Assembly: GCF_000312485.1 (NCBI RefSeq)
Contig: NZ_HE997645.1
Location: forward strand, 186,001-250,000
Length of the DNA: 64,000 nucleotides
From: Yersinia massiliensis CCUG 53443
Lineage (GTDB): Bacteria; Pseudomonadota; Gammaproteobacteria; Enterobacterales; Enterobacteriaceae
Reading direction: 5' to 3'
Shown here: positions 16,166 through 43,907 of the stretch, one piece after another
Position numbering within the stretch: the first letter of the stretch is position 1
Layout of the letters: every line of letters starts with the position of its first letter
Notes under the pieces: generated by a model
Told to the model about the DNA's origin: nothing
Databases searched by the model: none
Seen by the model: only the letters and a program-made list of their open reading frames with translations
Position numbers and translations under genes: made by a program

Positions 16166-16264
16166 TATTCAATTATTCCGTAGTGTACAGACGTATTCCG
16201 CCCCCACGAAATAGATGTGGTCATTAGCGAATGCTCTGTATGGCTGTTATCTGTTATATATAAA

Positions 16265-18860: not shown

Positions 18861-19694
18861 TCATACCTGCTCATACCATGGCGTTATTTTTCGCTGCAAT
18901 ACGCGCAGCCCCAACTCTAATCCTGCGGCAACGAAAGCAATCACGATGATACCTGCGATGACTACGTCTGTAGCGAGGAACTCACTAGCCGACTGCACCA
19001 TAAAACCCAGACCTCGGGTCGCAGCTATCAGCTCCGCTGCAACCAGAGTCGACCAACCAACGCCCAAACCAATACGAATCCCCGTAAGGATTGCAGGTAG
19101 CGCATTGGGGAGTACCACGAAGCGTAACACTTGCCAGCGTGTTGCCCCTAGGGCTTGAGCTGCACGGACTTTCACCTGTTCAATACTGCGTACGCCAACC
19201 ACTGTTGCAAGTGTAACCGGGGCAAAAATAGCCAAATAAATCAATAGAATCTTCGAAGTTTCCCCAATACCGAACCAAATCACTATTAATGGCAAATATG
19301 CCAATGGGGGGATAGGACGATAGATTTCAATCAATGGATCCAGTATCGCCCGTAAACGGTTATTGATGCCCATAGCAATCCCGACAGGAATACCAATGCT
19401 TACCGCAGCCAATAATGCGACCAGAATACGCCCTAAGCTGGCGGATAAATGCTGCCATAATGTGGCATTCATAAAACCTTGCGGGCTGGTAATAACCATC
19501 AACTGATGTAGCACCTGCTGCGGAGAAGGCAGAAAAAGGGGATTGATTAACTCGCACGCGGTGACTACCCACCAAATAATCAAAACCACTAATAATGTGG
19601 CACCGCTCAGTAATAGATTAAGGGAAATGTACCTGTATTTCTTCCGTTCCCCATGTGCAGCGACTCTATTTTTCAGGCCATAATCCCGTTTCAT
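18861..19694 (-). CDS. tauC: Taurine ABC transporter permease TauC
   Basis: A 277-residue inner-membrane permease of the taurine/sulfonate importer. It has six or so hydrophobic helices, the first at residues 28-48, and the cytoplasmic coupling motif of these permeases ([25 protein letters not shown], near residues 185-210). [21 protein letters not shown] and the ending match TauC. The start overlaps the stop of tauB by four bases, so the two are translationally coupled. It is the last gene of the operon; tauD, which normally follows in E. coli, is missing. Confidence 0.93.
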
Positions 19695-20458
19695 AATAAC
19701 CCCTCGCGCTGTTCAAAAAATTTTCCGAGAACATATTCACGTGTACTAATAAATTTTGGATCAGACTTGATGGCGCGGCAGGCTTCGCCACTCGCGTAAC
19801 GACGACCAAAATCAAGTGATAAGCTCTCCACTACCTGACCCGGTCCAGGGGAAAGTAATAGAAGTTTGCTAGCCAGAAAAATAGCCTCTTCAATATCGTG
19901 GGTTATCAGCAATATTTGTTTCCCTGTGTCACACCAAATATTGAGTAGTAACTCTTGCATCTGTTCGCGGGTGAATGCATCGAGCGCACCAAAAGGTTCA
20001 TCCAGCAACAGCATTCGTGGGTTTGCAGCCAAAGCGCGGGCAATACCAACACGCTGACGCATTCCTCCGGAAAGTTGCCAAATGTGGTAGTTTTCAAAAT
20101 CAGCCAACCCCACCTGCATTAATATTTGTCGTGATATTGTGTCGCGTTGTATTTTATTTATCCCTGCCAGTTGCAGTCCAAACCCTACGTTATTCAGGAC
20201 ATTACGCCAAGGTAGCAAACCTTCTGATTGGAAAACTACGCATCGTTCAGCGCCTGGAGATCTAACCCGCGCGCCATCAAGAGTAATATCCCCCGCAGAA
20301 GGGGTAATAAAACCAGCAACCAAGTTTAATAGCGTTGTTTTCCCACAGCCAGATGGCCCCAATATCACTACCAGTTCCCCATGACTAATTTGCAATGACA
20401 CGTCATCAAGCACTTTCAGCCCGTTATATTCCGCACTAATGTGGCTAACATTCAACAT
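19691..20458 (-). CDS. tauB: Taurine ABC transporter ATPase TauB
   Basis: A 255-residue ABC ATPase energising taurine import. Walker A is [11 protein letters not shown] (near residue 34), Q-loop FQSEGLLPW, signature [15 protein letters not shown], Walker [13 protein letters not shown], and the switch His in [10 protein letters not shown]. These and the C-terminal FGRRYASGE are close to TauB/SsuB; the partner TauA decides for taurine. It lies between tauA and tauC on the same strand, 13 bases after tauA. Confidence 0.95.
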
Positions 20459-20471: not shown

Positions 20472-21464
20472 TTACTTCTGCATGACCTGAGCTTGTTGTA
20501 CAAAGCGGTTGGTTACAAAGGCGCTGTAATCGTGCTCAACCTGAGATATTTTTCCCTCTTTTTGCAGAAACTTAGCGGTGTCTTGGATATTTTTTTCGAC
20601 CGGTTTACCCAACTGTACAATCTGCTCTGCCAATGGGAGGTAGCGACTTCCTTTGACCAACCCCGGTACTTGGTCTTCACTTGCCCCACTTAATCGGGCT
20701 AGAGTGCTGATGTTGATTTTATTCTCAAGCCACGCATCCGGAGCCGTTAAATAGGCTTTCTGTGCAGCTAATGTACTCCTGACAAAAGCGGTTACCACGT
20801 CAGGATGACTCTGTGCAAAATCCTTACGCACGACCCAAACATCCAGTGTTGGGGCCCCCCAAAGTCCAACTTGCTCAGAGTCGGTCAACACTTTGCCAGT
20901 CTTAGCGAGTTCATTGACCACTGGAGCCCAGACGTAAGCTCCATCAATATCGCCTCGCTGCCATGCCGCCGCTATCGCAGCTGGCTGCATATTCAGGATA
21001 TGAACATCTTGTTGCTCAATATCCCAATGTTGAAGGGCAGATAATAAACTGTAATGCGGAGTAGAAATGAACGGCACGGCGATTCGTTTTCCGATGAGAT
21101 CTTGGGGCGTATTGATTGATTTTTTTACCACCAATGCTTCGGATGAACCTAACTGCGAGGCAATAAGAAACACTTCAATGGGCAGCTTTTGGCTTGCACC
21201 AACAGCCAGCGGACTGGAACCAAGATTACCAATCTGTACATCGCCGGAGGCAAGTGCACGTAACACACCCGAACCACTATCGAACTTGCGCCAATCCACT
21301 GTAGCGCCCGACATTTTGGCAAAGCTGTTTTCCGCCTGTGCAACCTTTGCTGGCTCGGCTTCAGTCTGATATGCGACGATCACATTGACTGCTTGAAGAT
21401 CAGTTGTTGTCAGTGCTAAAACAAATATGGCTGAATATACAGATATAAAAAAATTACGTGTCAT
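20472..21464 (-). CDS. tauA: Taurine-binding periplasmic protein TauA
   Basis: A 330-residue periplasmic binding protein. A signal peptide ends near DLQAVNV. The mature sequence is very close to E. coli TauA as I remember it: VAYQTEAEPAKVAQAENSFA, DWRKFDSGSGVLRALASGD, QIGNLGSSPLAVGASQ, WQRGDIDGAYVWAPVV and SEQVGLWGAPTLDVWVVRKD. It delivers taurine to TauBC. It is the first gene of the operon. Taurine systems are normally under Cbl/CysB control during sulfate limitation; I did not identify a site. The identity of the binding protein is strong; the absence of tauD leaves the use of the taurine open. Confidence 0.96.
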   Translation of the reverse strand: MTRNFFISVYSAIFVLALTTTDLQAVNVIVAYQTEAEPAKVAQAENSFAKMSGATVDWRKFDSGSGVLRALASGDVQIGNLGSSPLAVGASQKLPIEVFLIASQLGSSEALVVKKSINTPQDLIGKRIAVPFISTPHYSLLSALQHWDIEQQDVHILNMQPAAIAAAWQRGDIDGAYVWAPVVNELAKTGKVLTDSEQVGLWGAPTLDVWVVRKDFAQSHPDVVTAFVRSTLAAQKAYLTAPDAWLENKINISTLARLSGASEDQVPGLVKGSRYLPLAEQIVQLGKPVEKNIQDTAKFLQKEGKISQVEHDYSAFVTNRFVQQAQVMQK

Positions 21465-21627: not shown

Positions 21628-23931
21628 CTAATTCATAACACTCACCTCCCCACTGTCAAGGCACATAATTACTTGATCTCCAGATTGTATTCTTTGGGTT
21701 GATAAACCTGTACCGACAATACAAGGAATACCATATTCTCTTGCAATAATAGCCGCATGGCTTAACACCCCGCCTTCATCGGTTACAATTCCGACTGACT
21801 TGACAATAACGTCCAAGGAATTAAATTGAGTCATAGACGTTATAATTATTTTTCCTGGCGTCATCACCGCCAGTCTCGCTTCTTTCAGACTCAGCGCATC
21901 ATTACAACGCAAAATAACAGCCTCACCCTTTATTTTATTCTCACTACCACGACAAGCGACACTCCCGCTTAATTTTTCTTGTTTGTCAGTATATAACTTA
22001 TGATATTCATCAACCGCCGAGTCACCAAACTTCACGCGACTGGAACCATTTGAAAATATAAAAATCATTTTTTCATTTCGGGAGATCTTTTCTTTCAGAG
22101 ATAATTTCTTTTTATCATTAATCAAACTTAAAATCTCATTAATTAAGTAATATTGATTTATATCCTTCACCTTCTCCCCTGTTAATTTACTTACCGCCAT
22201 GAAGAATGGCATCAAGATATAGTCAAAACTTGCCCAACACTGTTTTATCTCATTTCTGAATTTTTTAATTAGCCTGTATGTTTTAAAATGATTAGCTGGC
22301 AATTTATCAATACAGTCTGGTGGAGTATGAACCTCTACAGGATTCTCGAGCTGATGGTGGTGACTATTTTTGTCAATCCTATCTAATAAAGAATCGCAGG
22401 CATCATTATAGGTATAATGGTTTATCATCAACCATGGATATTTATCGAGATGACTCTTTATACTCGTTGTATCGATCATAGATTCTTCATTACATAGCGC
22501 TCGAAAGTCACGAGATTCATCAATTAAAGCCTCATGAGAAAGCCATTGATCAATCAGCTCAATCTCCTGATTATTAAGATAGTAATTGATATCCTCTCCG
22601 AACAATGCCGTAAACTCATTCCCAGTGGAACGGTAGTGACTTGTTAATTCACCATACAAATCCATAGTTTTCTGGAAGAAATCAGATAGCTTAGAGCAAT
22701 TCATTTTTTCAAAATTTAAATTAGAAGTTTGTTCTTTAAAATTAGAAAATGAAATCAACAAACCTTCAAGCATCGATTCTTGAATAGATATATTTTTCTC
22801 TTCAAAAAAGAAATCCCCTATCATTACTTGGTTTTTTACATCATTATCAGATAGATAAGCGTATGTCATTCCCTTTTCCACATACATAAAAAAGTCATAT
22901 AAGCCATTCCAAATAATGTCACTTCTATTACTTATTGCTAAATTTCGCGCATCTGTTCGCCAGCAAGGCTCACAATCTGACCACCATGGGTGGTATACCT
23001 TTTCATTCGTGGCCTCCATCATCGAATCTTTCGTTCCCAAGGCCGTTATGGGCCTAGATTGAAATATATAGGTCACACCATCACATACCCCCCATTCTAA
23101 ATCCAAACCATTAATGACCATGATTTTTTCAATCTGAGAGATTAGAACTGCAAGATTCTTTAAGATATTTACGCTTATTTTTGCAACACCCGGTTGTGTC
23201 AAATATCTTTCTATAATTCTGTGTTCATTTTTATCAATAATATATCTATCTGGTGTATCTCTGCCTGAAACTAGATTTTCACAGGTGCCTTTTACTACTT
23301 CTATAATGATTTTATCTTTATGACCAGAGACAGGATCAGCAGAAAAAATAACACCTGAAACATCAGGTACTATTAACTCTTGAACAATGACGGACATACG
23401 CTGAATAGCATTAGTCTTTTTGTTATTTAGATAATAGATTGCATTCTCATTAAATATTGAAGCCCAGCACGATTTTACCTTCATAGGTAAATCGTCTAAA
23501 GTTTCACAGACATAACTGTCGTACAAACCTGCTGAAGACTCACTTTCGCCATCTTCAGATACAGCACTGGATCTGACTATAAATCCATTTCTCCCATCCA
23601 AAGAGTGAGCATGCTCTAGGATGTCCTCCAATAAGTCATCGTGAATATCACCCTTCATTATTTTATTTTTTATATCAAGTAAACCCGCTACACTGACCTG
23701 TCCTTTCATTGCAGCTAATGTTGCCATCTCATCCAAATGATTTGATTTTATGAATGATAAATACTCATCCGCAGTAATAACAAATCCATTGGGAACCTTA
23801 ATTCCATTTAATCTAAGTATCCCAAGTGATTTTGCTTTTGGGCCAACCTTATCTACTTCCAAAAAGCCCGCCGATGACAGTGAATACACACCACTAACTG
23901 ATTTATTTTTTGTATTGGAGAAATAACTCAT
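21628..23931 (-). CDS. PEP-synthase-like phosphotransferase (first copy)
   Basis: A 767-residue protein of the PEP synthase/pyruvate phosphate dikinase/rifampin phosphotransferase group. The N-terminal ATP-grasp domain shows VPNGFVITADEY, FIVRSSAVSEDGESESSAGLYDSY, VIVQELIVPDVSGVIFSADP and an end at LEWGVCDGVTYIFQSRPI (about residue 295). The middle 350 residues are helical and unlike PEP synthase. The C-terminal swivelling domain has the phosphohistidine motif GGVLSHAAIIAREYGIPCIVG (His about 725). There is no C-terminal PEP/pyruvate barrel, so it is unlikely to make PEP; the layout is that of rifampin-phosphotransferase-like enzymes that phosphorylate a small molecule. It is markedly AT-rich. 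A 78-base gap separates it from the amidinotransferase gene upstream, so one transcript is likely. The substrate is unknown. Confidence 0.82.
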   Translation of the reverse strand: MSYFSNTKNKSVSGVYSLSSAGFLEVDKVGPKAKSLGILRLNGIKVPNGFVITADEYLSFIKSNHLDEMATLAAMKGQVSVAGLLDIKNKIMKGDIHDDLLEDILEHAHSLDGRNGFIVRSSAVSEDGESESSAGLYDSYVCETLDDLPMKVKSCWASIFNENAIYYLNNKKTNAIQRMSVIVQELIVPDVSGVIFSADPVSGHKDKIIIEVVKGTCENLVSGRDTPDRYIIDKNEHRIIERYLTQPGVAKISVNILKNLAVLISQIEKIMVINGLDLEWGVCDGVTYIFQSRPITALGTKDSMMEATNEKVYHPWWSDCEPCWRTDARNLAISNRSDIIWNGLYDFFMYVEKGMTYAYLSDNDVKNQVMIGDFFFEEKNISIQESMLEGLLISFSNFKEQTSNLNFEKMNCSKLSDFFQKTMDLYGELTSHYRSTGNEFTALFGEDINYYLNNQEIELIDQWLSHEALIDESRDFRALCNEESMIDTTSIKSHLDKYPWLMINHYTYNDACDSLLDRIDKNSHHHQLENPVEVHTPPDCIDKLPANHFKTYRLIKKFRNEIKQCWASFDYILMPFFMAVSKLTGEKVKDINQYYLINEILSLINDKKKLSLKEKISRNEKMIFIFSNGSSRVKFGDSAVDEYHKLYTDKQEKLSGSVACRGSENKIKGEAVILRCNDALSLKEARLAVMTPGKIIITSMTQFNSLDVIVKSVGIVTDEGGVLSHAAIIAREYGIPCIVGTGLSTQRIQSGDQVIMCLDSGEVSVMN

Positions 23932-24009
23932 CGCTAGATATAGTCCTTTATTATTAATGTTTTTATATTTTCGGGGCCTAGCTATTAATCGTGGTCGGCA
24001 CAGAAAAAG

Positions 24010-25140
24010 TTAGAAATAAGATTTCAATAGACCTTTTCGGCGAATATCACTGGTTGCACAGTGGATACCACCGCCAAAAACGTAGTGATCTTTAAAATCT
24101 ACAGGGATAGGCTGAATACCAATTTTTCGAAAAAAATCAATCGTTGGCTGTTCAGATGCCTCAACAATCACCCTTTGGGAATCGAGCATCAAAATGTTCA
24201 TAGAAAGCCAAGCACTCGACATATGAAATTCTGCTTTAGCTATGCCTCTAGGCGGATAAAAAATTTCCCAACCTCCACGTTGAAACATGTCAAGAATCTC
24301 TGGAGAGAGGCAGGGACGGTCAGGGCAGGAAAGAACTTTTCCTTCACCAATAGGCACCCAAGTCGCATCCATATGCACTGGGCCTGGATCATGAAATTTC
24401 ACTCGGTGAATACGATATTCAGGAGCAAGATGACGTTCCACCCATTGGATCCCGAGTTCATTCGTCACTTGGCTACGTTGTGCGAGTATATCCCGCCCAA
24501 AACGCGTGAAATCTGCAGCATCAAAGCAAGGTTCTGCCTCAGTGGTAATAAAACGACCGACTAAAGGGCCAACAGTAGCAGGAACTCCTGATTCACCACG
24601 AAACCAAGACATATCTTCTTCAGGATAATCCCAATCGTAAAGCGCATCAGGCATTCCTGACTTAGGGGCAGCCGTCCATTTCGCACCTTTCTTCCAATAT
24701 TCCATGACTAACGGACGATAGCGAAGATACTCAAAATAGCGGCAACGTTGCGACATCGGTGCTTCAATAATTTGATCACCCACGACAAGAAGAACATCGC
24801 GAACATCTGCATTACAAAATCCAGATGCAGTGAAATACGGTGTTTTTGCTTCCATTGAGCCAAAATCAATTGGACCTGGACGGCGAACCGTGACCCCTTC
24901 CCTTTCTAAAACACATTGCAGGTTATCCAGTGCAGTAGCCGCTTTTCGCACCATCTCTGCAGGATAGGGTTTTCCGGCATTTTTTTGATAAAAACCCCAA
25001 TATTCCTTTCTGATAAACGCTTTCATCTCATGAGTTAACGCTGGGATAGAAACCCCTTCAATGCTACCTACGATAACCTCTTCCAATGGGTCCCATTCGT
25101 TATAACTGCATACAGGAGAGGATTGTGAAATTTCTTCCAT
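24010..25140 (-). CDS. Arginine:glycine-type amidinotransferase
   Basis: A 376-residue member of the amidinotransferase family that moves the amidino group of arginine to an amine acceptor. The catalytic triad is intact: Asp 207 in CFDAADFTRFGRD, His 256 in VHMDATWVPIGEG and Cys 361 in GGGIHCATSDIRR. Spacing agrees closely with vertebrate glycine amidinotransferase. EPCFDAADFTRFGRDILAQ and SQVTNELG are diagnostic. Relatives in natural-product pathways include AmtA (phaseolotoxin), CyrA (cylindrospermopsin) and SxtG (saxitoxin), so the acceptor could be glycine, lysine, another amine or taurine. It sits between the PEP-synthase-like gene and an unrecognised gene on the same strand. The family call is secure; the acceptor is not known. 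Confidence 0.93.
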   Translation of the reverse strand: MEEISQSSPVCSYNEWDPLEEVIVGSIEGVSIPALTHEMKAFIRKEYWGFYQKNAGKPYPAEMVRKAATALDNLQCVLEREGVTVRRPGPIDFGSMEAKTPYFTASGFCNADVRDVLLVVGDQIIEAPMSQRCRYFEYLRYRPLVMEYWKKGAKWTAAPKSGMPDALYDWDYPEEDMSWFRGESGVPATVGPLVGRFITTEAEPCFDAADFTRFGRDILAQRSQVTNELGIQWVERHLAPEYRIHRVKFHDPGPVHMDATWVPIGEGKVLSCPDRPCLSPEILDMFQRGGWEIFYPPRGIAKAEFHMSSAWLSMNILMLDSQRVIVEASEQPTIDFFRKIGIQPIPVDFKDHYVFGGGIHCATSDIRRKGLLKSYF

Positions 25141-25672
25141 CGGGTAGTTCCTTAGTGAAGTAAGTCGGCTTATTACTATAAAAATTCGTAATGTCTAATA
25201 TTAAAATGCATAACGTCGAAATAGTGCTGAATATTTAGGCATTGCCGTTTTTGGGACTAATCAAATAAGATATGATCCAACTTAAATTAATGAAGTAGTT
25301 AATGGCAATAGGGGAAATAAAGAGGAATGGTGATATTAACAATTCACATATCTGTATAAAAAAACGTGCCAGACCTAGGTGTTAGCGGTTCTTTTAAAAA
25401 CACAAAAAACATGCCATGTAATAAAATGAAATTGACTACGTATTTTTTTACTTTCCCAAACTAACAAGTAATAAATTACGCATGAAAATTCATTTTCCTT
25501 CAAAGGAAATGGAATCAATACCACTACACGGTCATATTTCTTACTAAGATTTTATTGTGGTTGACTATTTAAGCGTGGTTTGGTGTCGTTGCCTTAGCTG
25601 TTGAAACACCGTAATGCAAACACCAAATCCATATTAACTGCTATTTTCCGTTGAAGTACGGTTATTTGGAAT
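25141..25672. other. AT-rich gap between the amidinotransferase and the unknown gene
   Basis: About 530 bases without a supported gene. An inverted pair TTTGGTGT (about 25580) and ACACCAAA (about 25621) could form a hairpin with a loop of some 30 bases. A promoter for the amidinotransferase operon may lie here, but I cannot point to clear -35 and -10 boxes. Confidence 0.45.
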
Positions 25673-26533
25673 TCATTTAACCGGATAAACAACTACATCC
25701 ATGTATCCACTAGATGGATGATATGGATATGATAAATTAGGTGCCGTTCTTAGTTTTTTCGAAAAGCAATTATTTTCAAAATTCGACCGTCCAAACGAAG
25801 AGTATATTGGATTGCCAAACAGGTTATTAATTTCATTACGAACATCATTACACCTTGTATTAGTTAGCAACTTACCCCCATAGTGAAAAATAAAACTCAC
25901 ACTAGTCAATTGATTGATTTCGGCAACTTTCTTAACAGCCTGAATATCATTAACAAATTCATTTAAAGAATTACCTTTTACATTATAAACAATGTCCTTT
26001 AATTTAACCCTACCTGTTTTATGGACACCTTTAACAATTAACAACTCAGGCTTACAAACAACAAGTATCTCATTGTGACAATCAGGATCCATCATTTGGA
26101 TAAAACGCTTGAAATATTCTAATTTATTATATGGACTACCTAAAGCAACATTACCTACTCCTTGACCATTAAGGATTCTATCAACTAGTTCATAGGAATT
26201 TATTATTCTCCCCGTTGGTTGCTCTTCAAATTTACCGGCATGATTAGGAAAATAAACATCAGATAAATGTGTTCCGATAATATTTTGATAAGGAACATCA
26301 AGAACAAGATGTGTTGGGAAAGCCCCTACCCCTTTCCCTTTAGAATAAGAGAGTAAAGAACAAGACATAATATCCCATGAAGATATTACATCTTCAAACC
26401 TTTCCCCTAAAAAACGAGATGCACACCTTCTATTACCTAAGCCACCCGTGGATGAAATAGTATGGATAATTTGAAATTCATTATTCATCAAACCTTGTTG
26501 CCACGATAATAATTTATTTTTCTTCTTATTCAT
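25673..26533 (-). CDS. Unrecognised 286-residue protein in the biosynthetic-looking cluster
   Basis: I do not recognise this protein. It has no signal peptide or membrane helix and is mixed alpha/beta with high Asn and Lys. Visible features are a conserved-looking Gly-rich start (HTISSTGGLGNRRCASRFLG), GVGAFPTHLVLDVPYQNIIGTHLSDV, a patch with FPNHAGKFEEQPTGRI, and a C-terminal VSFIFHYGGKLLTN followed by a Cys-containing segment and a Tyr/Pro-rich end. Cys residues are spaced through the chain without a metal-binding pattern. The gene is AT-rich like the PEP-synthase-like genes and unlike the aminotransferase next to it. Its position between amidinotransferase and aminotransferase suggests a pathway enzyme or tailoring protein, but this is only context. 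Confidence 0.6.
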   Translation of the reverse strand: MNKKKNKLLSWQQGLMNNEFQIIHTISSTGGLGNRRCASRFLGERFEDVISSWDIMSCSLLSYSKGKGVGAFPTHLVLDVPYQNIIGTHLSDVYFPNHAGKFEEQPTGRIINSYELVDRILNGQGVGNVALGSPYNKLEYFKRFIQMMDPDCHNEILVVCKPELLIVKGVHKTGRVKLKDIVYNVKGNSLNEFVNDIQAVKKVAEINQLTSVSFIFHYGGKLLTNTRCNDVRNEINNLFGNPIYSSFGRSNFENNCFSKKLRTAPNLSYPYHPSSGYMDVVVYPVK

Positions 26534-26761
26534 ATCCGTATTTACACTCCATATTTTAACATTAAAGAACCTAGTTTATTTCTACTATATAAGAATTTTA
26601 TTTTTATAAAATAAATAGAAAAATGAGTAGGTAATATAAGGAAAAGACTACATCTTTATACGATATTTCTAATACCGTATTCATATCGATACGCATTTTC
26701 TTTACTTCAGCAACTTTTGTTCCATCAGTCCTAGTGCAGAACCTTTAGTAGCACTAGCTGT

Positions 26762-27985
26762 TCAGACAGCACCAGTCGTAACTCGCCATTTGTGTAGCCG
26801 ATGCAATGCCTCATCAAGTACCTCGTCGGATTGTACCAGTGCAATGCGTACCCGACCCGCGCCACCCGTTCCGAAACCGCTACCGGGAGCCAGCAATACA
26901 CCAGTTGCCTCAAGTAATGTTTCAACAAAGTGCAAATCATCACCTGCAAAACCAGGTGGTAGCGGTGCCCATAGAAAGAAAGTGCCTTGCGAGGGAGGAA
27001 TGTTCCAGCCTAAAGATTTCGCACCAGCAATAAATCGACGCATACGCGCGGCATAAATTATACTGTTGCGTGCCGCGATGGTTTCCAGTTCGTCGAGTAT
27101 CTCTGCCGCCACGCACTGTAGCGGTAGGAAAGTTCCAAAGTCGGTATTAAACTTTGCGCTACGAATCTTTTCTACTAGCTCAGGCGCGCCGACGGCGAAC
27201 CCAATGCGCCAACCTGCAATACCGCATGATTTGCTCAAACTATGCAGCTCCAGTACACGTGATAATGCCCCCTGCCCCAGCAACGCTGAACCACCCAGAG
27301 TGCCATTACACCGAAACTCAAAGTTAATCTCGGCATAGGCCCGATCAATCACCACCCAAAGCGCATGGCGCTGAGCAAAATCCAGTACCTCTTGCAGCTT
27401 ACTTGGCGATAGTTCCCTACCTGTCGGATTACTTGGCGAGCAGATCACCAGTACTCGAGCTCCCGCTAATTGTTCATCTCGGATAGACTCCAGCTTTGGT
27501 TGCCCCAATTCATCACAGGCGAATAACTCCACACGAGCACCTATCAGCCGGGCACAACTTTGGTAGACGGTATAGGAAGGGTCTGGCATAAGCACCGCCT
27601 CGCCAGGGGAGAGGCAAGCTAACAGACTGTGAAATATGCCCTCTTTGGAGCCGAGTAGATCAACAACATGGCGTTCAGGATCAAGCAAAACAGGTGCACT
27701 GGGCGGTAAAAATCTACGCTGATAATAGGCAGCGAAGCGTTCGCGTAAATGACGATTGATGTCAGGACGGAACTCGCCATAACCATGTAGATCTTCACGA
27801 CCAACAAAGTGTTGCAGTCGCTGGCGCCAGCGCGGCTCAGGTGCTAAATCTGGATTACCAATGGATAAATCCAGCAGGGAGGAGCCAGCGAAATTAGGCA
27901 TATTTGGATGAGGGTAGTAGCGCTCGACCATTTTCTTAAGCAAGGTAAAAACGTCATTCGATGTATGGTCGGTCATCTGATTCAT
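26762..27985 (-). CDS. Class I/II PLP-dependent aminotransferase
   Basis: A fold-type I aminotransferase of about 407 residues. The PLP lysine is in SLSKSCGIAGWRIGFAVG; other marks are SPSNPTGRELSP (Asn contacting the cofactor), DRAYAEINFE (Asp and Tyr), and the substrate Arg in GGAGRVRIALVQ near the end. It resembles LL-DAP/succinyl-DAP and aspartate-type aminotransferases; the substrate is not evident. I prefer the ATG at 27985; a TTG at 28021 would add 12 residues and overlap the decarboxylase by 20 bases. Coupling with the decarboxylase is likely either way. It is more GC-rich than the unknown gene downstream, suggesting a separate origin for this pair. Confidence 0.9.
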   Translation of the reverse strand: MNQMTDHTSNDVFTLLKKMVERYYPHPNMPNFAGSSLLDLSIGNPDLAPEPRWRQRLQHFVGREDLHGYGEFRPDINRHLRERFAAYYQRRFLPPSAPVLLDPERHVVDLLGSKEGIFHSLLACLSPGEAVLMPDPSYTVYQSCARLIGARVELFACDELGQPKLESIRDEQLAGARVLVICSPSNPTGRELSPSKLQEVLDFAQRHALWVVIDRAYAEINFEFRCNGTLGGSALLGQGALSRVLELHSLSKSCGIAGWRIGFAVGAPELVEKIRSAKFNTDFGTFLPLQCVAAEILDELETIAARNSIIYAARMRRFIAGAKSLGWNIPPSQGTFFLWAPLPPGFAGDDLHFVETLLEATGVLLAPGSGFGTGGAGRVRIALVQSDEVLDEALHRLHKWRVTTGAV

Positions 27986-28001
27986 GGTTGCAGATCTCAG
28001 T

Positions 28002-29687
28002 TCAGCGGATTGGTTTTTCAAACTTCACCACGGTGAGTTCACTTGGCTGTAGACGCAAGCGGGCTTGAAAATGGTGAAACTGTGTAGCGATGAGTGCTAC
28101 GGCTTCGTCCCACTCGTGATCCGCACGCTGTTGCATCGGATAAAGTAAGAAGCCGGTAGTGACAGCGTCAGGATCATTGTCAATACGGTAGTCTGGAACA
28201 ACACTGAAAAGCGGCAGGTCATAACCTGCATTGACACGCGCCCAACACTCTTGCATGAAACTCATGGCAAGGTCTTGATAGGAAGATGCCAAGGAGATTA
28301 AGTCTGCTCCAAAGGGCGCTTCAAAAACCAGTTCCCAGCCCATACTCGATTTGTTCAACACCTGAAACAAACCTTGGCGTTCAAGAGCGTTAGCAAGCGA
28401 ATTGCGAGCATCATGTAAGGTAGTGAGATAGTCAGCATAACCGTTGCGGCCTAATTGGCGAAGATTGACCCAAGCGGACAAAATTCCTTGGCTCTGTCTG
28501 GAGTTTTCAAAAGTGTAACGATAGGCTCGAAACTGGCCGAACTGAAAATCCTTGTCACTGTAACGGTAGGTTCCGTCTCCCAGTTCATCCATAAAGCGAC
28601 GGTCTCGGGCGACAAAAAAGCTGCTCGCGTAGGGACACAAACCGTTTTTATGGAAATCAACGCCGAGAGAATCGAAACCGTCGATGCCGCGTAGCAGTTG
28701 CAGTACTCTAGCGATCCGTTCTCTACTGCGCAGATCAGGGACTCGTTGGCGCAGTTCCGCACTATCTGCATTGAGCAAGGTCAGATATAACCAGCCGATA
28801 ACACTGTCCAGATGTAGGTAGGGACGTTCTTTCAATTGATGTTCATTGGCGAACGCTTCGGCGATGGCGCGTACTTGGTGGGTATCTTCACAATTAAAGT
28901 TGATGGTGGTTCCACCACAACACACGATTGCCGCAACCCGGCGTCCGAGAGCATGCTGCTCATTGAGTATGTCCCGCAATGTGTCGGCCTGCATGCGCCC
29001 ATTACTGTTACTGGGTACACGCAGGCAGTTGTCTGAACCGAGTCCGAGCAGGCTGGCGGCATGTTCGACGCAGTAATGCGATCCTTCACTGCACAGAACG
29101 ACCAAATCACGGGGCAAACCTGTACGTAACGATCCGGGAGCGATTCGGCTCAATGCCGACTTGAGGGCATACATGATAGTGGACTTGCCACCACTGCAGG
29201 CTATACCCATAGCTTGCGGCCAGCCAGCCCACCCCCCGATGCGCCGCGCCACCTTTTGCTCTATGAGTAATGCTTCTCCACCGAATGTATCCATCAAGCT
29301 GTTGGTGTTGTAGGCAGTGGCTAGCCATGCGGCCGCCGTAGCTTCCATACTCGGCTTGGGCACCATGTTAAACAGGGAATATCGTGACTGTGGACGGATT
29401 GCCCCCTGGAAATAGGCCGCAACGTCGTCAAACAGTTCAAGATCGTCTACAGGTGCATTGCTTTGGTCACGCTCAAGCTCATCAAAGTAGGAGAAGGCTC
29501 GCGATGGGTACTTTGGACCAAGATTGGCGAGGGCTGCTGGGGCGAAAGCCAGATCCGGCAGTTTAAGCTGGTTGGCACGAGCACTTCTCTGCACGTAGGC
29601 ATCCAACTCCATCGTATAATCGACAAGGGCTTGTAGACTCTCTGGCTGGGCAGATGAAATAGACAATGGTTCAAGATATTTCCGCAT
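28002..29687 (-). CDS. Group II PLP-dependent decarboxylase
   Basis: A 561-residue fold-type I amino-acid decarboxylase of the group II family (relatives decarboxylate glutamate, aromatic amino acids, diaminobutyrate, cysteine sulfinate). The PLP Lys is Lys 347 in GVDFHKNGLCPYASSFF; the Asp that contacts the pyridine ring is in LHLDSVIGWLYL; ACSGGKSTIMYALK and CSEGSHYCVEHAASLLGLG form the cofactor phosphate and ring sites. The usual VDAHKW is replaced by VDFHKN, so it is a divergent branch. It comes immediately upstream of the aminotransferase, and the two overlap or abut. Its amine product could feed the amidinotransferase or be oxidised by the neighbouring amine dehydrogenase, both inferences. 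The substrate cannot be read from sequence. Confidence 0.88.
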   Translation of the reverse strand: MRKYLEPLSISSAQPESLQALVDYTMELDAYVQRSARANQLKLPDLAFAPAALANLGPKYPSRAFSYFDELERDQSNAPVDDLELFDDVAAYFQGAIRPQSRYSLFNMVPKPSMEATAAAWLATAYNTNSLMDTFGGEALLIEQKVARRIGGWAGWPQAMGIACSGGKSTIMYALKSALSRIAPGSLRTGLPRDLVVLCSEGSHYCVEHAASLLGLGSDNCLRVPSNSNGRMQADTLRDILNEQHALGRRVAAIVCCGGTTINFNCEDTHQVRAIAEAFANEHQLKERPYLHLDSVIGWLYLTLLNADSAELRQRVPDLRSRERIARVLQLLRGIDGFDSLGVDFHKNGLCPYASSFFVARDRRFMDELGDGTYRYSDKDFQFGQFRAYRYTFENSRQSQGILSAWVNLRQLGRNGYADYLTTLHDARNSLANALERQGLFQVLNKSSMGWELVFEAPFGADLISLASSYQDLAMSFMQECWARVNAGYDLPLFSVVPDYRIDNDPDAVTTGFLLYPMQQRADHEWDEAVALIATQFHHFQARLRLQPSELTVVKFEKPIR

Positions 29688-30423
29688 TCTAATGGCTTTT
29701 CCTATTAGTTAGATGTTTCAATAAAGCGCTAACCTGTCCGTTGCGTTGCCATCGAACTGAGACGCAAGGTTAATCCTGCCAAATAAAAGCCGACCAGATT
29801 GTTGTTACCTCATAACGAAACCAGCAGATTCTGCGGAGGGTATTTGCAATTATTTTCATTGTTTTTGGCACATCTTATTATCTGAATTTTTGTTCATTCT
29901 ATTTAAGATGGGCTATACAAGTACGCTATTATTTTCAAATATCCTCGGCGCAGAGCGTCGATAAAAAGGTATTAACATCTCAATAGTTTTCTGTCATTGA
30001 AATCGTACAGCTACAAGTCGTTATCCAACCCTACATTTTAAAAAAACTTAAGTTTTCCAATCAGTTTTCGGCACAATTATACGGATGAAAATATGAGAGG
30101 ATAGTTGCACTAAGGTGCAATAACGGATTGTACTTTAAGGGAGTGAATGTAGAAGGTTAGTTATTGGGGCTAATTGCAAGAAATAGCCATCCTCGAAAAC
30201 CCATGACTACTCATCAGTTTTCGAGGACAAATAAAATACAAATAATTTAAGTGGAAACATTTTGCCACCGAAAGCAGCCATTGACACTCACGCTGATAGA
30301 ATCTGACACCAACGAGTTATACCAATATCAGTGATATACTCACTGAGTTATGCCGTTGGCTAAACATTCAAATTGATATTAAAAACCATCATTTAAACTC
30401 ATAGATAATATGCACGAATAAAG
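29688..30423. other. Gap with palindromic elements between the decarboxylase and the TS-like gene
   Basis: About 735 bases without a gene. It should hold the decarboxylase promoter. A strong hairpin lies at 30190-30227, and a short palindrome ATATCA-G-TGATAT at 30325-30337 resembles an operator half-site pair. No coding frame is convincing. Confidence 0.5.
30190..30227. terminator. Perfect 11-bp hairpin, likely terminator of the TS-like gene
   Basis: TCCTCGAAAAC and GTTTTCGAGGA are exact inverse complements separated by 16 bases. It lies some 200 bases past the end of the thymidylate-synthase-like gene. On neither strand is there a clean T run, so a role as a binding site or mRNA stabiliser is also possible. 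Confidence 0.5.
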
Positions 30424-31497
30424 CTATTCATTTTTTTGATCGGCTTGCATGACCAAGTAATAATTAAAAAACTCTGATATAACCTTATCAGCAGAATAAA
30501 ATAAGCCCTCATCTCTCCACTTTCGGCTAAAATACTCAATAGCTGCGACACGAAAATCACTTTGCTTTAGGTCTTCAAGATATTTTATGACTGTATTATG
30601 GCTTAGACCTTTTAACTCAGCATTATAGACCCTCAACATAATAGCTATCGATTGGAAGAACGGGTCAGTCAATTTTTTTTCTAAAACCATAGCATCTTGA
30701 AATTTTCCCTCACGGCAGAGTGACTCCGCGTGAAACAAAATATCAAGTGTACTATCCAAATTATTTAAAGTTGTCTTAATTGGAGTTGGTTCTATACCGC
30801 ATTCATATGGGCTTCTAGGTTTCTTAATCCGTAATAGATCACGAGAAGTATCATAGTGCCTGCTATAGATATGGAATGTCCCCACATACCAAGATAAGGT
30901 TCCCATCTGGTAACCTAATGTTGTCGCGACAATTTCGTGGAGAACGCTCCACTCAAAGAAGTTAATACCACTGAATCCCCAAATTGCATCATTTGCTCGA
31001 ATAGTGACATGCAAATATAATATATTATCTCTCTGTATAAATTGCAGCCAATTATTGCATGGCACATCTTTTGTATCTGAATAATCACTCATAGGATCAA
31101 ATAAAGACATCACTGCGCGTTTAGTATTCGGATCCTCTCGCAACCTGCTAACGATACAAGAAACCTGATCAACCTTACCCATCCAATTTCTCAGACGCGG
31201 CCCGTAAGCGGCACGCCATGTCTTGTTATCATCAGAAAAGTCTATTGATCGCGGCAGGTAATGCTGTAGAAACTCAAGATCTCCTCTGCCAGCAAGTACC
31301 CAGATAGTTTCTGCAACTTGGGCAAATACATTATTTTTACGTCCGGGTAAGACAAGAAAACGTTCCTGAGGATTAGCAATTTTCGTTAATGTTGATAATA
31401 CCTCTTTTTGTGTCTGGCCCCTTGCGACCATTTCAGTGCCTACGCTGTCAATACTCCTAAGAACATCGAGCAGTGCATGAGTGATATTCCTATTCAT
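30424..31497 (-). CDS. Thymidylate-synthase-family enzyme with C-terminal extension
   Basis: A 357-residue member of the thymidylate synthase fold. Key residues fall at nearly the E. coli ThyA positions: catalytic Cys 147 (DVPCNNW), Arg 167 and Asp 170 (RANDAIWG, phosphate loop), Asn 179 (GINFFEW), His 209 and Tyr 211 (GTFHIYSRH); AAYGPRLRNW and AETIWVLAG match the N-terminal half. Asn 179 corresponds to the residue that selects uracil over cytosine in ThyA (Asp in dCMP hydroxymethylase). It differs from housekeeping ThyA in having Asn after the catalytic Cys, Ala for the Ser of RSxD and about 90 extra C-terminal residues of helical character. Homologues act in modified-nucleotide and nucleoside-antibiotic pathways. 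It is probably a pathway enzyme using a pyrimidine nucleotide and methylene-tetrahydrofolate. Confidence 0.85.
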   Translation of the reverse strand: MNRNITHALLDVLRSIDSVGTEMVARGQTQKEVLSTLTKIANPQERFLVLPGRKNNVFAQVAETIWVLAGRGDLEFLQHYLPRSIDFSDDNKTWRAAYGPRLRNWMGKVDQVSCIVSRLREDPNTKRAVMSLFDPMSDYSDTKDVPCNNWLQFIQRDNILYLHVTIRANDAIWGFSGINFFEWSVLHEIVATTLGYQMGTLSWYVGTFHIYSRHYDTSRDLLRIKKPRSPYECGIEPTPIKTTLNNLDSTLDILFHAESLCREGKFQDAMVLEKKLTDPFFQSIAIMLRVYNAELKGLSHNTVIKYLEDLKQSDFRVAAIEYFSRKWRDEGLFYSADKVISEFFNYYLVMQADQKNE

Positions 31498-32125
31498 TTT
31501 AATTTATCCAAGCCATTTCTATTTAATCACACTCACTCTAAAAGCGTGAGTTATTTTTTTTTAACAATATAACTTAATGCCAATGATATTGGCAATCGAC
31601 CAAAAAAAGTAGATTTAATATACTAGAAATTAATACAGCTGTAAAAATTCATGCGTTCACCTTAGACATACGGATACATTCAACGAATTCGATAAAAATT
31701 CCCATTAAAAAAATGAAATATACTACGCTATATTTTTAACTTACTTTTAAAATAAGTAAAAGCGCCATATCCTTGCTGTTATAAACATCATCTGCTTGAG
31801 TCTGAGAACCACGGACATAGATAAGATAGTGATCTTTCAACGTAGCATGGGATGCTGAACACTCTCTACCATTGAGGGAAATCTATATTCTCAGTGATTA
31901 GATTACTAGAACAAAGCCAAAACATCCTACAAACAAAACACATTTGACCTACATACTATTGGCAGACGATATTTTATTATAAAAAATAATCACTTTAAAA
32001 TTATTATGTAAAATAACTCTTCATAAGGTTATCGATATTCTAATACCAATACTAACTCCTTGGTGTCGGTAAATATGGCATTCCATTTTCAAATTTTTGA
32101 AATACTTCTAATAAAAGGTAGCGTT
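31498..32125. other. Divergent intergenic region between the TS-like gene and aauB
   Basis: About 630 AT-rich bases between divergent genes; both promoters should be here. ATCCTACAAAC at 31925 resembles the repeated TTTCCTACA element found upstream of other genes. No gene is seen. Confidence 0.5.
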
Positions 32126-33292
32126 ATGAAAATGAATATTCATTCCTCCTGTCTGTTCGCCATGTTGTTCCCTATGATCCTGATTTCCTCCGTCCAAGCT
32201 GAAACACCTTTCAAACCCGAACGAATCAGTGTTGAAAAAGAGCTTCGGGCGGGACCAAATCTGTTTGTTATAGATCAAAGCTGGAGTGGCACGAGTAACA
32301 TTACTGTTCTTTCTGCGGATGATTTGAAAACAAAAGGCAGCATCTCCACTGGCCTCCTAGCACAATTCCTTCTATCAAAGGACAACAAGCAACTCTATAC
32401 CGCCTCAGTTTACCCAAAACGTATCGTCTGGGGGCCAACAGAAGCAGTCATCCAGCAATTCGATGTAAAAACACTGTCGCTGACTAAAGAGATGCAAACG
32501 TCGCCGAAAATGGCGCAAGTATCAGCCAATATCAATAACTTCAGGCTGTCCGCTAACGAAAAATACGCCTTTGTGCAAAATGCTACCCCTGCTGCTTCTG
32601 TCAATGTTATCGATATCGCCAGCGGCAATACACTGTTGGAAATTCCAACGCCAGGATGCTGGGGCATTTATCCATCTGCTGATGATAATCGCTTTAGCTC
32701 GTTATGCGGCGATGGCACGGTTGCCAGCTATCAAATCGCGACCGATCAGAAAAATTATAACATTATCAAAAGTGACAATATTTTTGACGCCGATAAAGAC
32801 GCTTTGTTTATCAGCTCACAACGAGATGGCGATACGCTGATGTTCACCTCTTTCAACGGCAACATGTATTTGCTGAATGACAAAGAGGCAAAAGTGACAC
32901 TGACCGATAAGTTCAGTTACACCAAAGGGATCAAAAGCCATTGGGTACCCACTGGCTTTGAAATTCTTGCCTTCAATAAACCCAATAATCTGATGTTCGT
33001 CACCATGCACCCAAATGGCAAGGAAGGCAGCCATAAAGATGGGGCAAAAGAGATCTGGGGAATTGATATGGTCAGCCACAAGGTTGTGACCCGCGTGAAA
33101 ACGGCCAATACGATCTCACTGGCCGTTTCACAAACGAAAAATCCAGTGCTATTCGCCCTGAGCGGAGGAGACGGTAGTACAAGCGGCACAGTGCTGAAAT
33201 ATACCTTCAAAGGCCCACAATTTACAGGTAAGCCTGCTGGAAAGGCCACCAGATTGGGTCTGTTTAACCAATTGCTGATGGTGGATTATTAG
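32126..33292 (+). CDS. aauB: Aromatic amine dehydrogenase large subunit
   Basis: The 388-residue heavy subunit of a quinoprotein amine dehydrogenase (AauB/MauB type), a periplasmic seven-bladed beta-propeller that holds the TTQ-containing small subunit. The start at 32126 is chosen because AAAAGG lies at a good distance and a signal peptide follows directly (MKMNIHSSCLFAMLF to VQAETPF); a TTG at 32060 would add 22 residues. Family marks include AEDLKTKGS-like blade repeats, IWGIDMVSHKVVTRV near the end, and KGIKSHWVPTGFE. It is the first gene of an operon with mauE-, mauD- and mauA-like genes, which fixes the identity; the aauA partner points to aromatic amines as substrate. Confidence 0.88.
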   Translation: MKMNIHSSCLFAMLFPMILISSVQAETPFKPERISVEKELRAGPNLFVIDQSWSGTSNITVLSADDLKTKGSISTGLLAQFLLSKDNKQLYTASVYPKRIVWGPTEAVIQQFDVKTLSLTKEMQTSPKMAQVSANINNFRLSANEKYAFVQNATPAASVNVIDIASGNTLLEIPTPGCWGIYPSADDNRFSSLCGDGTVASYQIATDQKNYNIIKSDNIFDADKDALFISSQRDGDTLMFTSFNGNMYLLNDKEAKVTLTDKFSYTKGIKSHWVPTGFEILAFNKPNNLMFVTMHPNGKEGSHKDGAKEIWGIDMVSHKVVTRVKTANTISLAVSQTKNPVLFALSGGDGSTSGTVLKYTFKGPQFTGKPAGKATRLGLFNQLLMVDY

Positions 33293-33293
33293 T

Positions 33294-33851
33294 ATGATTT
33301 CCCAATTTATGGCCCCATGTCATTTCATGTTGATGACATTCATGGCTCTGTTGTTTATTCAAGCTGCCTTGCATAAAGGAAGCGATATTCACCGTTTTTC
33401 AGGTTATGTGGCTAATTATCACCGCTTTCTACAACCCTTCAGTATGGTGATTGCTTATCTGCTGCTCACGCTGGAAATTATGGCGACTGTGCTGGCGATA
33501 GTTCCTGCAACATCCGTGTTTGGACAGGGTTTATTCCTCCTGATTTTGGCGCTGTACACTCTTGCAATAACCCTTAGCGTTATCTGGGGCAAAAGTACGA
33601 TTGACTGCGGTTGCGGTGGTCCTTCAGTTAAGGTATCGCCGCAAACCGTAGCACGTAACCTCTGTCTACTAATGCTGTGTGTACTGATGATTACGCTACC
33701 AGCAGAATCTATCAGCCGCCCCATGCTGATCGCCGCTATTTTCGCCGGTTTCACTCTATGGATGGGATATATCCTCGCTGAACAGCTAATGCGTAATAGC
33801 GATCTGATAAATCGTTTCAGATATTCGCTTCATACTCAGGAGCAACGATGA
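33294..33851 (+). CDS. aauE: MauE/AauE membrane protein for small-subunit maturation
   Basis: A 185-residue inner-membrane protein with four to five hydrophobic helices. It contains the conserved MauE Cys-x-Cys element GKSTIDCGCGGPSVKVS between helices, thought to work with MauD in disulfide formation of the small subunit. It starts one base after the aauB stop and overlaps aauD by four bases, so it is translationally coupled. Length and order match mau and aau operons. Confidence 0.88.
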   Translation: MISQFMAPCHFMLMTFMALLFIQAALHKGSDIHRFSGYVANYHRFLQPFSMVIAYLLLTLEIMATVLAIVPATSVFGQGLFLLILALYTLAITLSVIWGKSTIDCGCGGPSVKVSPQTVARNLCLLMLCVLMITLPAESISRPMLIAAIFAGFTLWMGYILAEQLMRNSDLINRFRYSLHTQEQR

Positions 33852-34453: not shown

Positions 34454-34471
34454 TAACATTGGAAAACTACG

Positions 34472-35447: not shown

Positions 35448-35450
35448 CAG

Positions 35451-35909: not shown

Positions 35910-35936
35910 TGCAACCCAATATAGATAGGTACGGTC

Positions 35937-42261: not shown

Positions 42262-42307
42262 TTTATTGGTTGCTATCACTATTTCATTACTTTTAGAGTA
42301 TTATTTT

Positions 42308-43009: not shown

Positions 43010-43039
43010 CTTAATGCACGACTACTAATTAAATTTTAA

Positions 43040-43060
43040 TGCCATTTACTAAAAATGGCA
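43040..43060 (+). terminator. Intra-operon hairpin before the operon 3 chaperone
   Basis: TGCCATTT and AAATGGCA form an 8-bp stem with a five-base loop, between the second pilin and the chaperone gene. No T run follows, so it is more likely an mRNA-stability or attenuation element than a full terminator. Confidence 0.45.
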
Positions 43061-43097
43061 CTAATACTCTGTTAATTTATAATAAAGTTGAATTTTT

Positions 43098-43814: not shown

Positions 43815-43907
43815 ATATCAGGATTTTATTTACTAGACAATACCATGGAGGTTAATTGACATTATTAATAATTTATCATTTATTTGAAAATATAAAATAG
43901 GCCATTA

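What the first reader, a model, noticed from the sequence alone, without database searches (positions are those of the whole stretch)
21628..31497. Candidate undescribed biosynthetic cluster with an amidinotransferase and a PEP-synthase-like kinase
Six same-strand genes encode a phosphotransferase of the PEP synthase fold, an arginine-type amidinotransferase with intact triad, an unknown protein, an aminotransferase, a decarboxylase and a thymidylate-synthase-fold enzyme. The combination suggests a guanidino and possibly phosphorylated small molecule. Phaseolotoxin biosynthesis, as I recall it, also pairs an amidinotransferase (AmtA) with a PEP-synthase-like protein (PhtL), but I see no other match to it.
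Basis: partly seen in the sequence, partly recalled or inferred. Interest (0 to 1): 0.8.

Follow-up and report, generated by a model that had tools for sequence, protein, structure and literature searches.

The report
Taurine-linked amidinotransferase and kinase locus
A bacterium carries an enzyme that probably moves the guanidine group of arginine onto taurine, next to its own taurine importer and an unusual phosphate-transferring enzyme, which hints at a small sulfur- and perhaps phosphorus-containing guanidine compound not yet described from bacteria.

Summary
The six ORFs are real and correctly classified, but they are not one unit. In the only other genus genome found with these genes (G015), that five-gene block keeps its order. 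PPDK2-U286 lies about 8 kb beyond it, TS-DC-AT about 242 kb away and the mau operon about 1.1 Mb away. Close relatives of AGAT, PPDK1, PPDK2, U286, DC, TS and mauA are confined to the same 2 of 25 genus genomes, which are not sisters in a ppsA tree.

Two contexts point to taurine as the acceptor: the block holds a second taurine transporter lacking the usual tauD neighbour, and the closest amidinotransferases (74-76%) are cyanobacterial, one lying between cysteate synthase and a PRMT-like methyltransferase. Its acceptor flap (DPGPV) differs from glycine (DPNPM) and lysine (AmtA, DMHPM) enzymes.

PPDK1 is no PEP synthase: its catalytic His is C-terminal, as in rifampin phosphotransferase. Best reading: imported taurine becomes taurocyamine (reasonable inference), which PPDK1 phosphorylates or activates (weak inference). 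Phaseolotoxin kinship is superficial. TS resembles CMP hydroxymethylase; DC-AT also occurs as a plasmid pair without AGAT nearby.

The parts
18861..19694 (-). tauC2, permease of a second taurine ABC transporter
   Evidence: NCBIfam taurine permease equivalog 454 bits, cut-off 342; 91% identical and in the same order in G015
19691..20458 (-). tauB2, ATPase of the second taurine ABC transporter
   Evidence: NCBIfam equivalog 444 bits, cut-off 357; 93% in G015
20472..21464 (-). tauA2, taurine-binding protein; no tauD in this block
   Evidence: NCBIfam equivalogs 553 (cut-off 490) and 427 (cut-off 304) bits; 92% in G015; the genus's usual TauA is 72-74% identical
21628..23931 (-). PPDK1, RPH-type ATP-grasp/phosphohistidine phosphotransferase, 767 aa, His725 near the C-terminus
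   Evidence: PF01326 at 27-305 and PF00391 at 691-761; same domain order as rifampin phosphotransferase, not PEP synthase (PMC4844700 passages)
24010..25140 (-). AGAT-family amidinotransferase, probable arginine:taurine amidinotransferase, 376 aa
   Evidence: Human AGAT 406 bits; cyanobacterial relatives 74-76%; flap DPGPV and clade insert
25673..26533 (-). U286, protein of unknown function, with another copy elsewhere in both genomes
   Evidence: No Pfam, NCBIfam or PDB match; two copies each in G000 and G015 and none in the other 39 of 41 genomes
26762..28021 (-). Class I/II aminotransferase (AT), overlapping the decarboxylase gene; probably a separate module
   Evidence: PF00155; DC-AT adjacent in G015 and on three plasmids
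28002..29687 (-). PLP-dependent decarboxylase (DC), probably a separate module
   Evidence: PF00282 71 bits; 87% in G015 at another locus
30424..31497 (-). TS, pyrimidine-nucleotide hydroxymethylase-like enzyme of the thymidylate synthase fold; probably a separate module
   Evidence: Best PDB match CMP 5-hydroxymethylase 116 bits, thymidylate synthases 60 or less; no NCBIfam thymidylate synthase cut-off met
32060..37412 (+). Neighbouring mau-type operon (mauB, mauE, mauD-position thioredoxin-like gene, mauA, two c-type cytochromes, multicopper oxidase); same 2-of-25 distribution for mauA, role in the locus unknown
   Evidence: Pfam; mauA only in G000 and G015 of 41 genomes; seven genes in the same order in G015 at 1.69 Mb
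37811..39991 (+). PPDK2, diverged paralog of PPDK1 (24-27%), His kept, Q-x-R-P of the ATP-grasp domain lost
   Evidence: Pfam; alignments of PPDK1 and PPDK2

Best explanation
The core is a five-gene unit, AGAT-PPDK1-tauABC. TauABC imports taurine (inferred from equivalog scores). The amidinotransferase moves the amidino group of arginine to taurine, giving taurocyamine and ornithine (inferred from two independent gene contexts and a clade-specific acceptor flap). PPDK1 then uses ATP to phosphorylate its own C-terminal His725 and passes the phosphate to an acceptor held by its unique central domain; the likely acceptor is taurocyamine or something made from it (weak inference). U286 and PPDK2 probably belong to the same locus, because PPDK2 and a U286 copy stay within about 13 kb of the core in both genomes. 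PPDK2 looks degenerate as a kinase. AT-DC, TS and the mau operon are modules of their own, with uncertain or no role here. Shown: genes, domain order, conserved block, distribution. Inferred: substrates and products.
For: (1) AGAT-PPDK1-tauA-tauB-tauC keep order and close spacing in both genomes at 95, 81, 92, 93 and 91% identity. (2) The transporter is a second copy: 16 of the 19 genus genomes have a 72-74% identical TauA; all 16 of those loci have a 288-289-residue ORF directly after tauC, and the one tested is TauD (526.7 bits, cut-off 313). The block copy has no such ORF in either genome. The two transporter types split 100/100. (3) Of 11 loci that a scan for short peptide patterns found in the genome collection, 5 cyanobacterial ones are 74-76% identical, one alphaproteobacterial MAG is 62%, the other 5 are 41-43%. 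Nostocaceae L034 has cysteate synthase (517 bits, cut-off 325), AGAT and a PRMT-like methyltransferase in a row, 158 and 52 bp apart. Moorena L037 has cysteate synthase (536 bits) and L036 and L037 a PLP decarboxylase within 10 kb of AGAT. (4) The clade of 8 (100/100) shares an FRG(E/D) insert in 8 of 8 rows against 0 of the 12 other rows; Gly at flap position 3 is in 7 of 8 against 0 of 12. (5) Human GATM makes taurocyamine (PMC9772407, abstract).
Against: I found no assay of any enzyme of this clade in the searches. Cysteate synthase over the cut-off was found in 2 of the 5 clade genomes that could be searched (Nostocaceae and one Moorena); Okeania, Leptolyngbya and Aestuariivirgaceae had none. 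The window genome and G015 have none either, which fits import but does not prove it. The 62% relative (L038) sits beside a radical SAM gene and a nucleotidyltransferase, so the clade's acceptor may vary. No full-length PPDK1 relative was found outside the two genomes: only the own genome of 394 in the order at 1e-45, only the own genome of 369 in the class for a four-sequence profile at 1e-60, and only partial matches (8.2e-26 or weaker) in 8 of 9 genomes that hold AGAT relatives. PPDK1 is therefore not a usual partner of this amidinotransferase clade: none beside the five cyanobacterial AGATs; a 43% AGAT (L039) has a partial PPDK-like match (26%, 8e-10) about 5 kb away. Structure models of PPDK1 and U286 were too poor to use (pLDDT 35 and 39).
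Confidence: 0.5

Rival explanations
1. Six-gene (or larger) single biosynthetic cluster: all modules make one guanidino, possibly phosphorylated, compound.
For: AGAT, PPDK1, PPDK2 (as a hit of the PPDK1 query), U286, DC of 87% identity, mauA and a TS of at least 90% identity occur in the same 2 of 25 genus genomes. Those genomes' nearest kin in the ppsA tree, G024 and G005, lack them in the same searches (for the tree). In the window all lie within 21.2 kb.
Against: In G015 the modules are far apart (about 306, 553, 567 and 1,690 kb). DC-AT pairs occur on plasmids without AGAT in the stretch read. TS homologs elsewhere sit with DNPH1-like and ATP-grasp-like genes. AT was not searched in the genus. 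I had no search left to test whether other accessory genes are also shared by just these two genomes, so the co-occurrence has no control.
Confidence: 0.2
2. Taurocyamine itself is the end product, a compatible solute or a nitrogen and sulfur store; PPDK1 has an unrelated role.
For: Asterubine (a methylated taurocyamine; structure recalled) is suggested to act as a compatible solute in a sponge (PMC12903071, passages). Moorena loci carry ProX-like glycine-betaine-binding proteins beside AGAT.
Against: PPDK1 lies between AGAT and tauABC in both genomes, which suggests a shared pathway.
Confidence: 0.2
3. Acceptor other than taurine (glycine, a polyamine or an amino sugar), with the transporter present for another reason.
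For: AGAT-family enzymes vary in acceptor (one search lists glycine and inosamine-phosphate enzymes and relatives). L038 (62%) has a different neighbourhood. An Okeania locus holds a guanidinoacetate N-methyltransferase homolog (267 bits) beside a fragment of a second AGAT-like gene, so glycine-type chemistry is close by.
Against: The flap differs from the glycine and lysine enzymes; two taurine-related contexts agree.
Confidence: 0.25
4. A relative of the phaseolotoxin pathway.
For: An amidinotransferase is paired with a PEP-synthase-like protein; PhtL is postulated to be related to N-P bond formation (PMC11278893, passages).
Against: Flap DPGPV against AmtA's DMHPM. The nearest relatives found are cyanobacterial. 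No other Pht-type gene was recognised by the family scans of the locus, though I searched for none by name.
Confidence: 0.05

Closest known systems
Human/animal L-arginine:glycine amidinotransferase (AGAT/GATM)
   Same: Closest solved relative, 406 bits over residues 3-375; triad kept as D207/H256/C361
   Different: 300-flap DPGPV instead of DPNPM; a clade insert with FRGE where the human protein is shorter (alignment)
Cyanobacterial cysteate synthase-AGAT-PRMT-like gene row (Nostocaceae L034; related genes in Moorena and Leptolyngbya)
   Same: Amidinotransferase 74-76% identical, same flap type and insert
   Different: The cyanobacteria that hold cysteate synthase could make taurine and methylate the product; here taurine seems to be imported and an RPH-type enzyme lies where the methyltransferase would be. 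I found no paper on this gene row
Rifampin phosphotransferase (RPH)
   Same: ATP-grasp domain, other domain, C-terminal phosphohistidine domain; Lys22 and Arg117 equivalents K32 and R120 kept
   Different: Central domain not matched by sequence; 185 bits against a cut-off of 999
Phaseolotoxin AmtA/PhtL
   Same: Pairing of an amidinotransferase with a PPDK/PEPS-like protein
   Different: Different acceptor flap; PhtL not compared
CMP 5-hydroxymethylase (for the TS-like gene)
   Same: Best PDB match, 116 bits over residues 21-214
   Different: No nucleoside-antibiotic partner recognised beside it in the window; an Asn is aligned with an Asp of the hydroxymethylase at what I recall as the base-reading position

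Membership tests
AGAT-type amidinotransferase | Catalytic Asp-His-Cys triad | tested here: met
   D207, H256 and C361 align with the human residues (the human numbers D254, H303, C407 are recalled)
AGAT-type amidinotransferase, glycine acceptor | 300-flap DPNPM of human AGAT | tested here: not met
   DPGPV; flap letters of hAGAT, AmtA and CyrA from PMC4887976
Arginine:taurine amidinotransferase | Transfers the amidino group to taurine | not testable with these tools
   Context only
Phaseolotoxin AmtA | Flap DMHPM | tested here: not met
   DPGPV
Phaseolotoxin (Pht) cluster | Other pht genes (argK, phtU, desI) present | not tested
   No dedicated search; none recognised in the scanned proteins
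PEP synthase / PPDK | Central His domain; NCBIfam PEP synthase cut-offs | tested here: not met
   His domain at 691-761 of 767; 220 and 205 bits against 598 and 740
RPH-type phosphotransferase architecture | ATP-grasp at the N-terminus, His domain at the C-terminus | tested here: met
   PMC4844700 passages
Rifampin phosphotransferase proper | NCBIfam RPH cut-off 999 bits | tested here: not met
   185 bits
TauABC taurine transporter | NCBIfam equivalog cut-offs for TauA, TauB and TauC | tested here: met
   3 of 3 proteins over cut-off
Taurine utilisation operon tauABCD | tauD directly after tauC | tested here: not met
   No such ORF in the block in either genome; an ORF of TauD size at 16 of 16 usual loci, one of them tested
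Phosphagen kinase | ATP:guanido phosphotransferase domain | tested here: not met
   PPDK1 and PPDK2 hit only PPDK_N and PEP-utilizers in Pfam
Thymidylate synthase ThyA | NCBIfam thymidylate synthase cut-offs | tested here: not met
   88 bits or less against cut-offs of 108 to 576, none met; each genus genome also has a separate 23-26% match of ThyA size

The most novel reading that the evidence does not exclude
A bacterial pathway that turns imported taurine into a phosphorylated guanidino-sulfonate (for example N-phosphotaurocyamine or an N-P bonded derivative), made by an arginine:taurine amidinotransferase and an RPH-type dikinase rather than by a phosphagen kinase; the same amidinotransferase clade also serves a taurine-taurocyamine-methyltaurocyamine (asterubine-like) route in cyanobacteria.
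Probability: 0.25. Interest if true: 0.75.

Novelty: new variant of a known kind. Interest (0 to 1): 0.52.

Why it matters
If true, it gives bacteria a route to taurocyamine, which some lower animals use as a phosphate acceptor in place of creatine (PMC9772407, passages). It would assign a substrate to a clade of amidinotransferases and offer candidate genes for asterubine-type compounds, for which my searches found no biosynthetic paper. It would also suggest a new kind of acceptor for RPH-type phosphotransferases.

Tried and rejected
Single-cluster reading: set aside because the modules separate in G015 and DC-AT and TS have other neighbours elsewhere. PEP synthase reading of PPDK1: rejected on domain order and cut-offs. 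Thymidylate synthase reading of TS: rejected on scores.

Structure prediction of U286 (alone) and of PPDK1 (with PPDK2 only) gave pLDDT 38.6 and 35.1; I drew nothing from them and ran no fold search. Viral contig scans with PPDK1 and U286 found no relatives; with AGAT, 5 loci at 25-30%; the phage collection gave 4 records at 26-27%. Promoter and terminator scans gave no more sites than shuffles (36 against a mean of 41.2; 11 against 11.2), so they count for nothing. AGAT in 394 genomes of the order at 1e-40: 4 genomes, own included, the others 37-45% identical; their surroundings were not studied.

G019-G024 were not in the tauA search. Of the AGAT-like loci found, L043 (split match), the L033 fragment, L095 to L098 and the plasmid and phage hits that were not fetched were left out of the tree. 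That tree warns of long branches (L094 with L039), which lie outside the clade of interest. In one search rows L048-L050 were read on the wrong strand and L051 came out empty; they were replaced. The decarboxylase on the Kosakonia (L045) and Rhodococcus (L060) plasmids has no AT match in the stretch read. A protein over the YEM beta-lactamase cut-off in G015 (YEM is named for Yersinia mollaretii, PMC10740994, table entry) suggests that the genus is Yersinia; this is an inference.


Full report
OBSERVATION. Pfam and NCBIfam give a PPDK/PEPS-like protein (PPDK1), an aminotransferase (AT), a PLP decarboxylase (DC) and a thymidylate-synthase-fold protein (TS); the amidinotransferase and the 286-residue protein (U286) have no family hit at 0.001. 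The amidinotransferase is a clear AGAT relative (human AGAT 406 bits). Directly downstream of PPDK1 on the same strand are tauA, tauB and tauC, all over NCBIfam's taurine cut-offs. A second PPDK-like gene (PPDK2) lies at 37811-39991, beyond a mau-type operon, both on the other strand.

WHAT IS CONSERVED. Among the own genome and 24 genus relatives, AGAT is in 2 of 25: G000 (own) and G015. The same two, and no others of the 25, hold close relatives of PPDK1, with PPDK2 showing up as a weaker hit of the same query, of DC (87%; G001, G009 and G010 have only partial matches of about 30%), of U286 (two copies each) and of mauA. Only these two hold a TS of at least 90% identity; the other genus members show only a 23-26% match of ThyA size, and one genome of another family has a 58% TS. 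AT was not searched; it lies beside DC in both. In a ppsA tree of 24 of the 25 genomes, G000 pairs with G024 (95.3% DNA identity) and G015 with G005 (90.3%), while G000 and G015 are 85.6% identical. G024 and G005 lack the genes in the searches just named. So the genes seem to have come or gone together, against this one-gene species tree; whether other accessory genes do the same was not tested. Synonymous divergence of AGAT, tauA2 and TS (0.48-0.51) is below that of ppsA (0.98) and the usual tauB (0.84); PPDK1, tauB2, DC, AT and U286 (0.61-0.77) are nearer, mauA (0.83) and the oxidase gene (0.99) equal to it, and PPDK2 (1.39) above. This leans towards transfer for part of the set but is not uniform.

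In G015 the block AGAT-PPDK1-tauABC has the same order and close spacing (L004). U286-PPDK2 begins about 8 kb beyond it, and farther on comes an EAL-fimbria region matching the window's right flank (window 40192-48131). TS-DC-AT lies about 242 kb away and the mau operon about 1.1 Mb away. The window's U286 is 60% identical to the G015 copy next to PPDK2, while the other G000 copy is 67% identical to that G015 copy, so the copies by the locus may not be strict orthologs.

TAURINE. The genus has a usual tauABC followed by a TauD-sized ORF: 16 of the 19 genus genomes have the 72-74% TauA, 16 of 16 of those loci have a 288-289-residue ORF after tauC, and the one tested is TauD. The block's tauABC is a second, distinct copy (100/100 split) with no tauD. 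Taurine import thus sits beside an amidinotransferase rather than beside the desulfonating enzyme.

The amidinotransferase's closest relatives found by a pattern scan of the genome collection are cyanobacterial: Okeania, Nostocaceae, Leptolyngbya and two Moorena, 74-76% (the scan finds only genomes sharing one of six short peptides). In Nostocaceae L034 it sits between cysteate synthase (TIGR03844, 517 bits, cut-off 325) and a PRMT-like methyltransferase (PRMT_C domain; PDB PRMTs up to 219 bits). The methyltransferase also follows AGAT in Leptolyngbya L035 and Moorena L037; Leptolyngbya has a phosphoserine transaminase before it. Moorena L036 and L037 have a cysteate synthase homolog (79-81% to L034's; L037's scores 536 bits) and a PLP decarboxylase on the same stretch. 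Cysteate synthase plus a decarboxylase would give taurine, AGAT taurocyamine, and the methyltransferase a methylated taurocyamine such as asterubine. This is my inference from the gene set. Not all members fit: Okeania, Leptolyngbya and Aestuariivirgaceae genomes showed no cysteate synthase over the cut-off (2 of 5 searchable clade genomes did; L036's genome was not held), and the Aestuariivirgaceae locus has other neighbours. Human GATM can make taurocyamine (PMC9772407, abstract), so the chemistry is within the family's reach.

The acceptor flap of human AGAT is DPNPM, of AmtA DMHPM, of CyrA DIFPS (PMC4887976, passages). The window has DPGPV; the clade of 8 has DPGPV (2), DPGPI (4), DPSPI (1) and SSGPV (1), and all 8 share an FRG(E/D) insert, absent in the 12 other sequences of the tree.

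PPDK1. It has the ATP-grasp domain at 27-305 and the phosphohistidine domain at 691-761 of 767. In PEP synthase the catalytic His is central; in rifampin phosphotransferase it is C-terminal, and that enzyme turns drug and ATP into phospho-drug, AMP and phosphate (PMC4844700, abstract in the search listing and passages). PPDK1 follows the latter order and keeps the equivalents of RPH Lys22 and Arg117 and the His. PPDK2 (24-27%) keeps Lys, Arg and His but has lost the Q-x-R-P stretch of the ATP-grasp domain in both genomes, so it may not load phosphate from ATP by itself (inference). Apart from the own genome, no PPDK1 relative was found in 394 genomes of the order at 1e-45, nor any match of the four-sequence profile in 369 of the class at 1e-60. 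Plasmid matches cover at most 57% of it among the 20 rows listed, and none of 291 records has one place covering 80%. Genomes with AGAT relatives hold only partial matches. Its acceptor is unknown. Taurocyamine is the natural guess, since PPDK1 sits between AGAT and tauABC.

THE OTHER MODULES. DC-AT occurs as an adjacent pair on plasmids of Enterobacter cloacae (69 and 75% identical), Brevibacillus laterosporus and Melissococcus plutonius; I read 5 of the 223 plasmid records with a DC match, and two of them, Kosakonia and Rhodococcus, show DC without AT. TS is nearer to CMP 5-hydroxymethylase (116 bits) than to thymidylate synthase (60 or less); relatives in an Apilactobacillus plasmid and in one genome of the order (G028) sit beside DNPH1-like and ATP-grasp-like genes (the G028 gene names are my reading of the sequence starts). 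A Sinorhizobium relative has no such neighbours in its list. U286 has a distant, partial relative (31% over 56%) close to type VI secretion genes in Rahnella; its role is open.

KNOWN OR NEW. My literature searches showed no paper, by title and abstract start, on a bacterial or cyanobacterial taurocyamine or asterubine gene set; one search listed 20 of 295 papers and 20 of 70, and the library lacks most subscription journals. The parts are known families; the combination is, as far as I could see, undescribed. I rate it a new variant of a known kind. The taurine step is about as likely as not to be right as stated; the phosphorylation step is a guess with some support from domain order.

Noticed in passing
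L034 8559-12284; also L035 1317-3689, L036 1159-11116, L037 2098-12406: Cyanobacterial sets of cysteate synthase, AGAT-type amidinotransferase and PRMT-like methyltransferase (full set in L034 and L037, part in L035 and L036): candidate genes for taurine, taurocyamine and asterubine-like compounds.
   Followed up: partly
L033 2-1376: Okeania: fragment of a second AGAT beside a clear guanidinoacetate N-methyltransferase homolog (267 bits), as for creatine synthesis.
   Followed up: partly
window 32060-37412: mau-type operon with two c-type cytochromes and a multicopper oxidase; no MauG-like domain in its seven proteins by Pfam. mauA in 2 of 25 genus genomes.
   Followed up: partly
L044 11947-14883: DC-AT pair on an Enterobacter cloacae plasmid that also carries an IMI-5 carbapenemase gene.
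   Followed up: no
L004 7073-7813: Protein over the YEM-family subclass B2 metallo-beta-lactamase cut-off in G015, between the AGAT block and PPDK2.
   Followed up: no
L004 8092-14526: G015 only: amidohydrolase, type III PKS-like and Castor/Pollux-type channel genes between the AGAT block and U286-PPDK2.
   Followed up: no
L130 5671-10998 and L046 4905-11243: TS-like gene beside a DNPH1-like hydrolase and ATP-grasp-like genes in two distant bacteria: possible nucleoside-derived product cluster.
   Followed up: partly
L027 9911-10630: Distant U286 relative near type VI secretion genes and a YopT-type protease gene on a Rahnella plasmid.
   Followed up: no
L031 8942-9784 and L021 15440-16255: Unknown 271-280-residue protein, about 74% identical, beside the second U286 copy in G000 and near TS-DC-AT in G015.
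   Followed up: no
window 43098-46910 and 13577-16984: Chaperone-usher fimbrial genes on both sides of the locus (right side by Pfam; left side by similarity).
   Followed up: no
L039 4662-11083: A 43% AGAT relative has a partial PPDK-like match (26%, 8e-10) about 5 kb away.
   Followed up: no
Phage records MT932329, NC_027997, FN667788, PQ898602: Amidinotransferase homologs (26-27%) in Campylobacter and Synechococcus phages.
   Followed up: no
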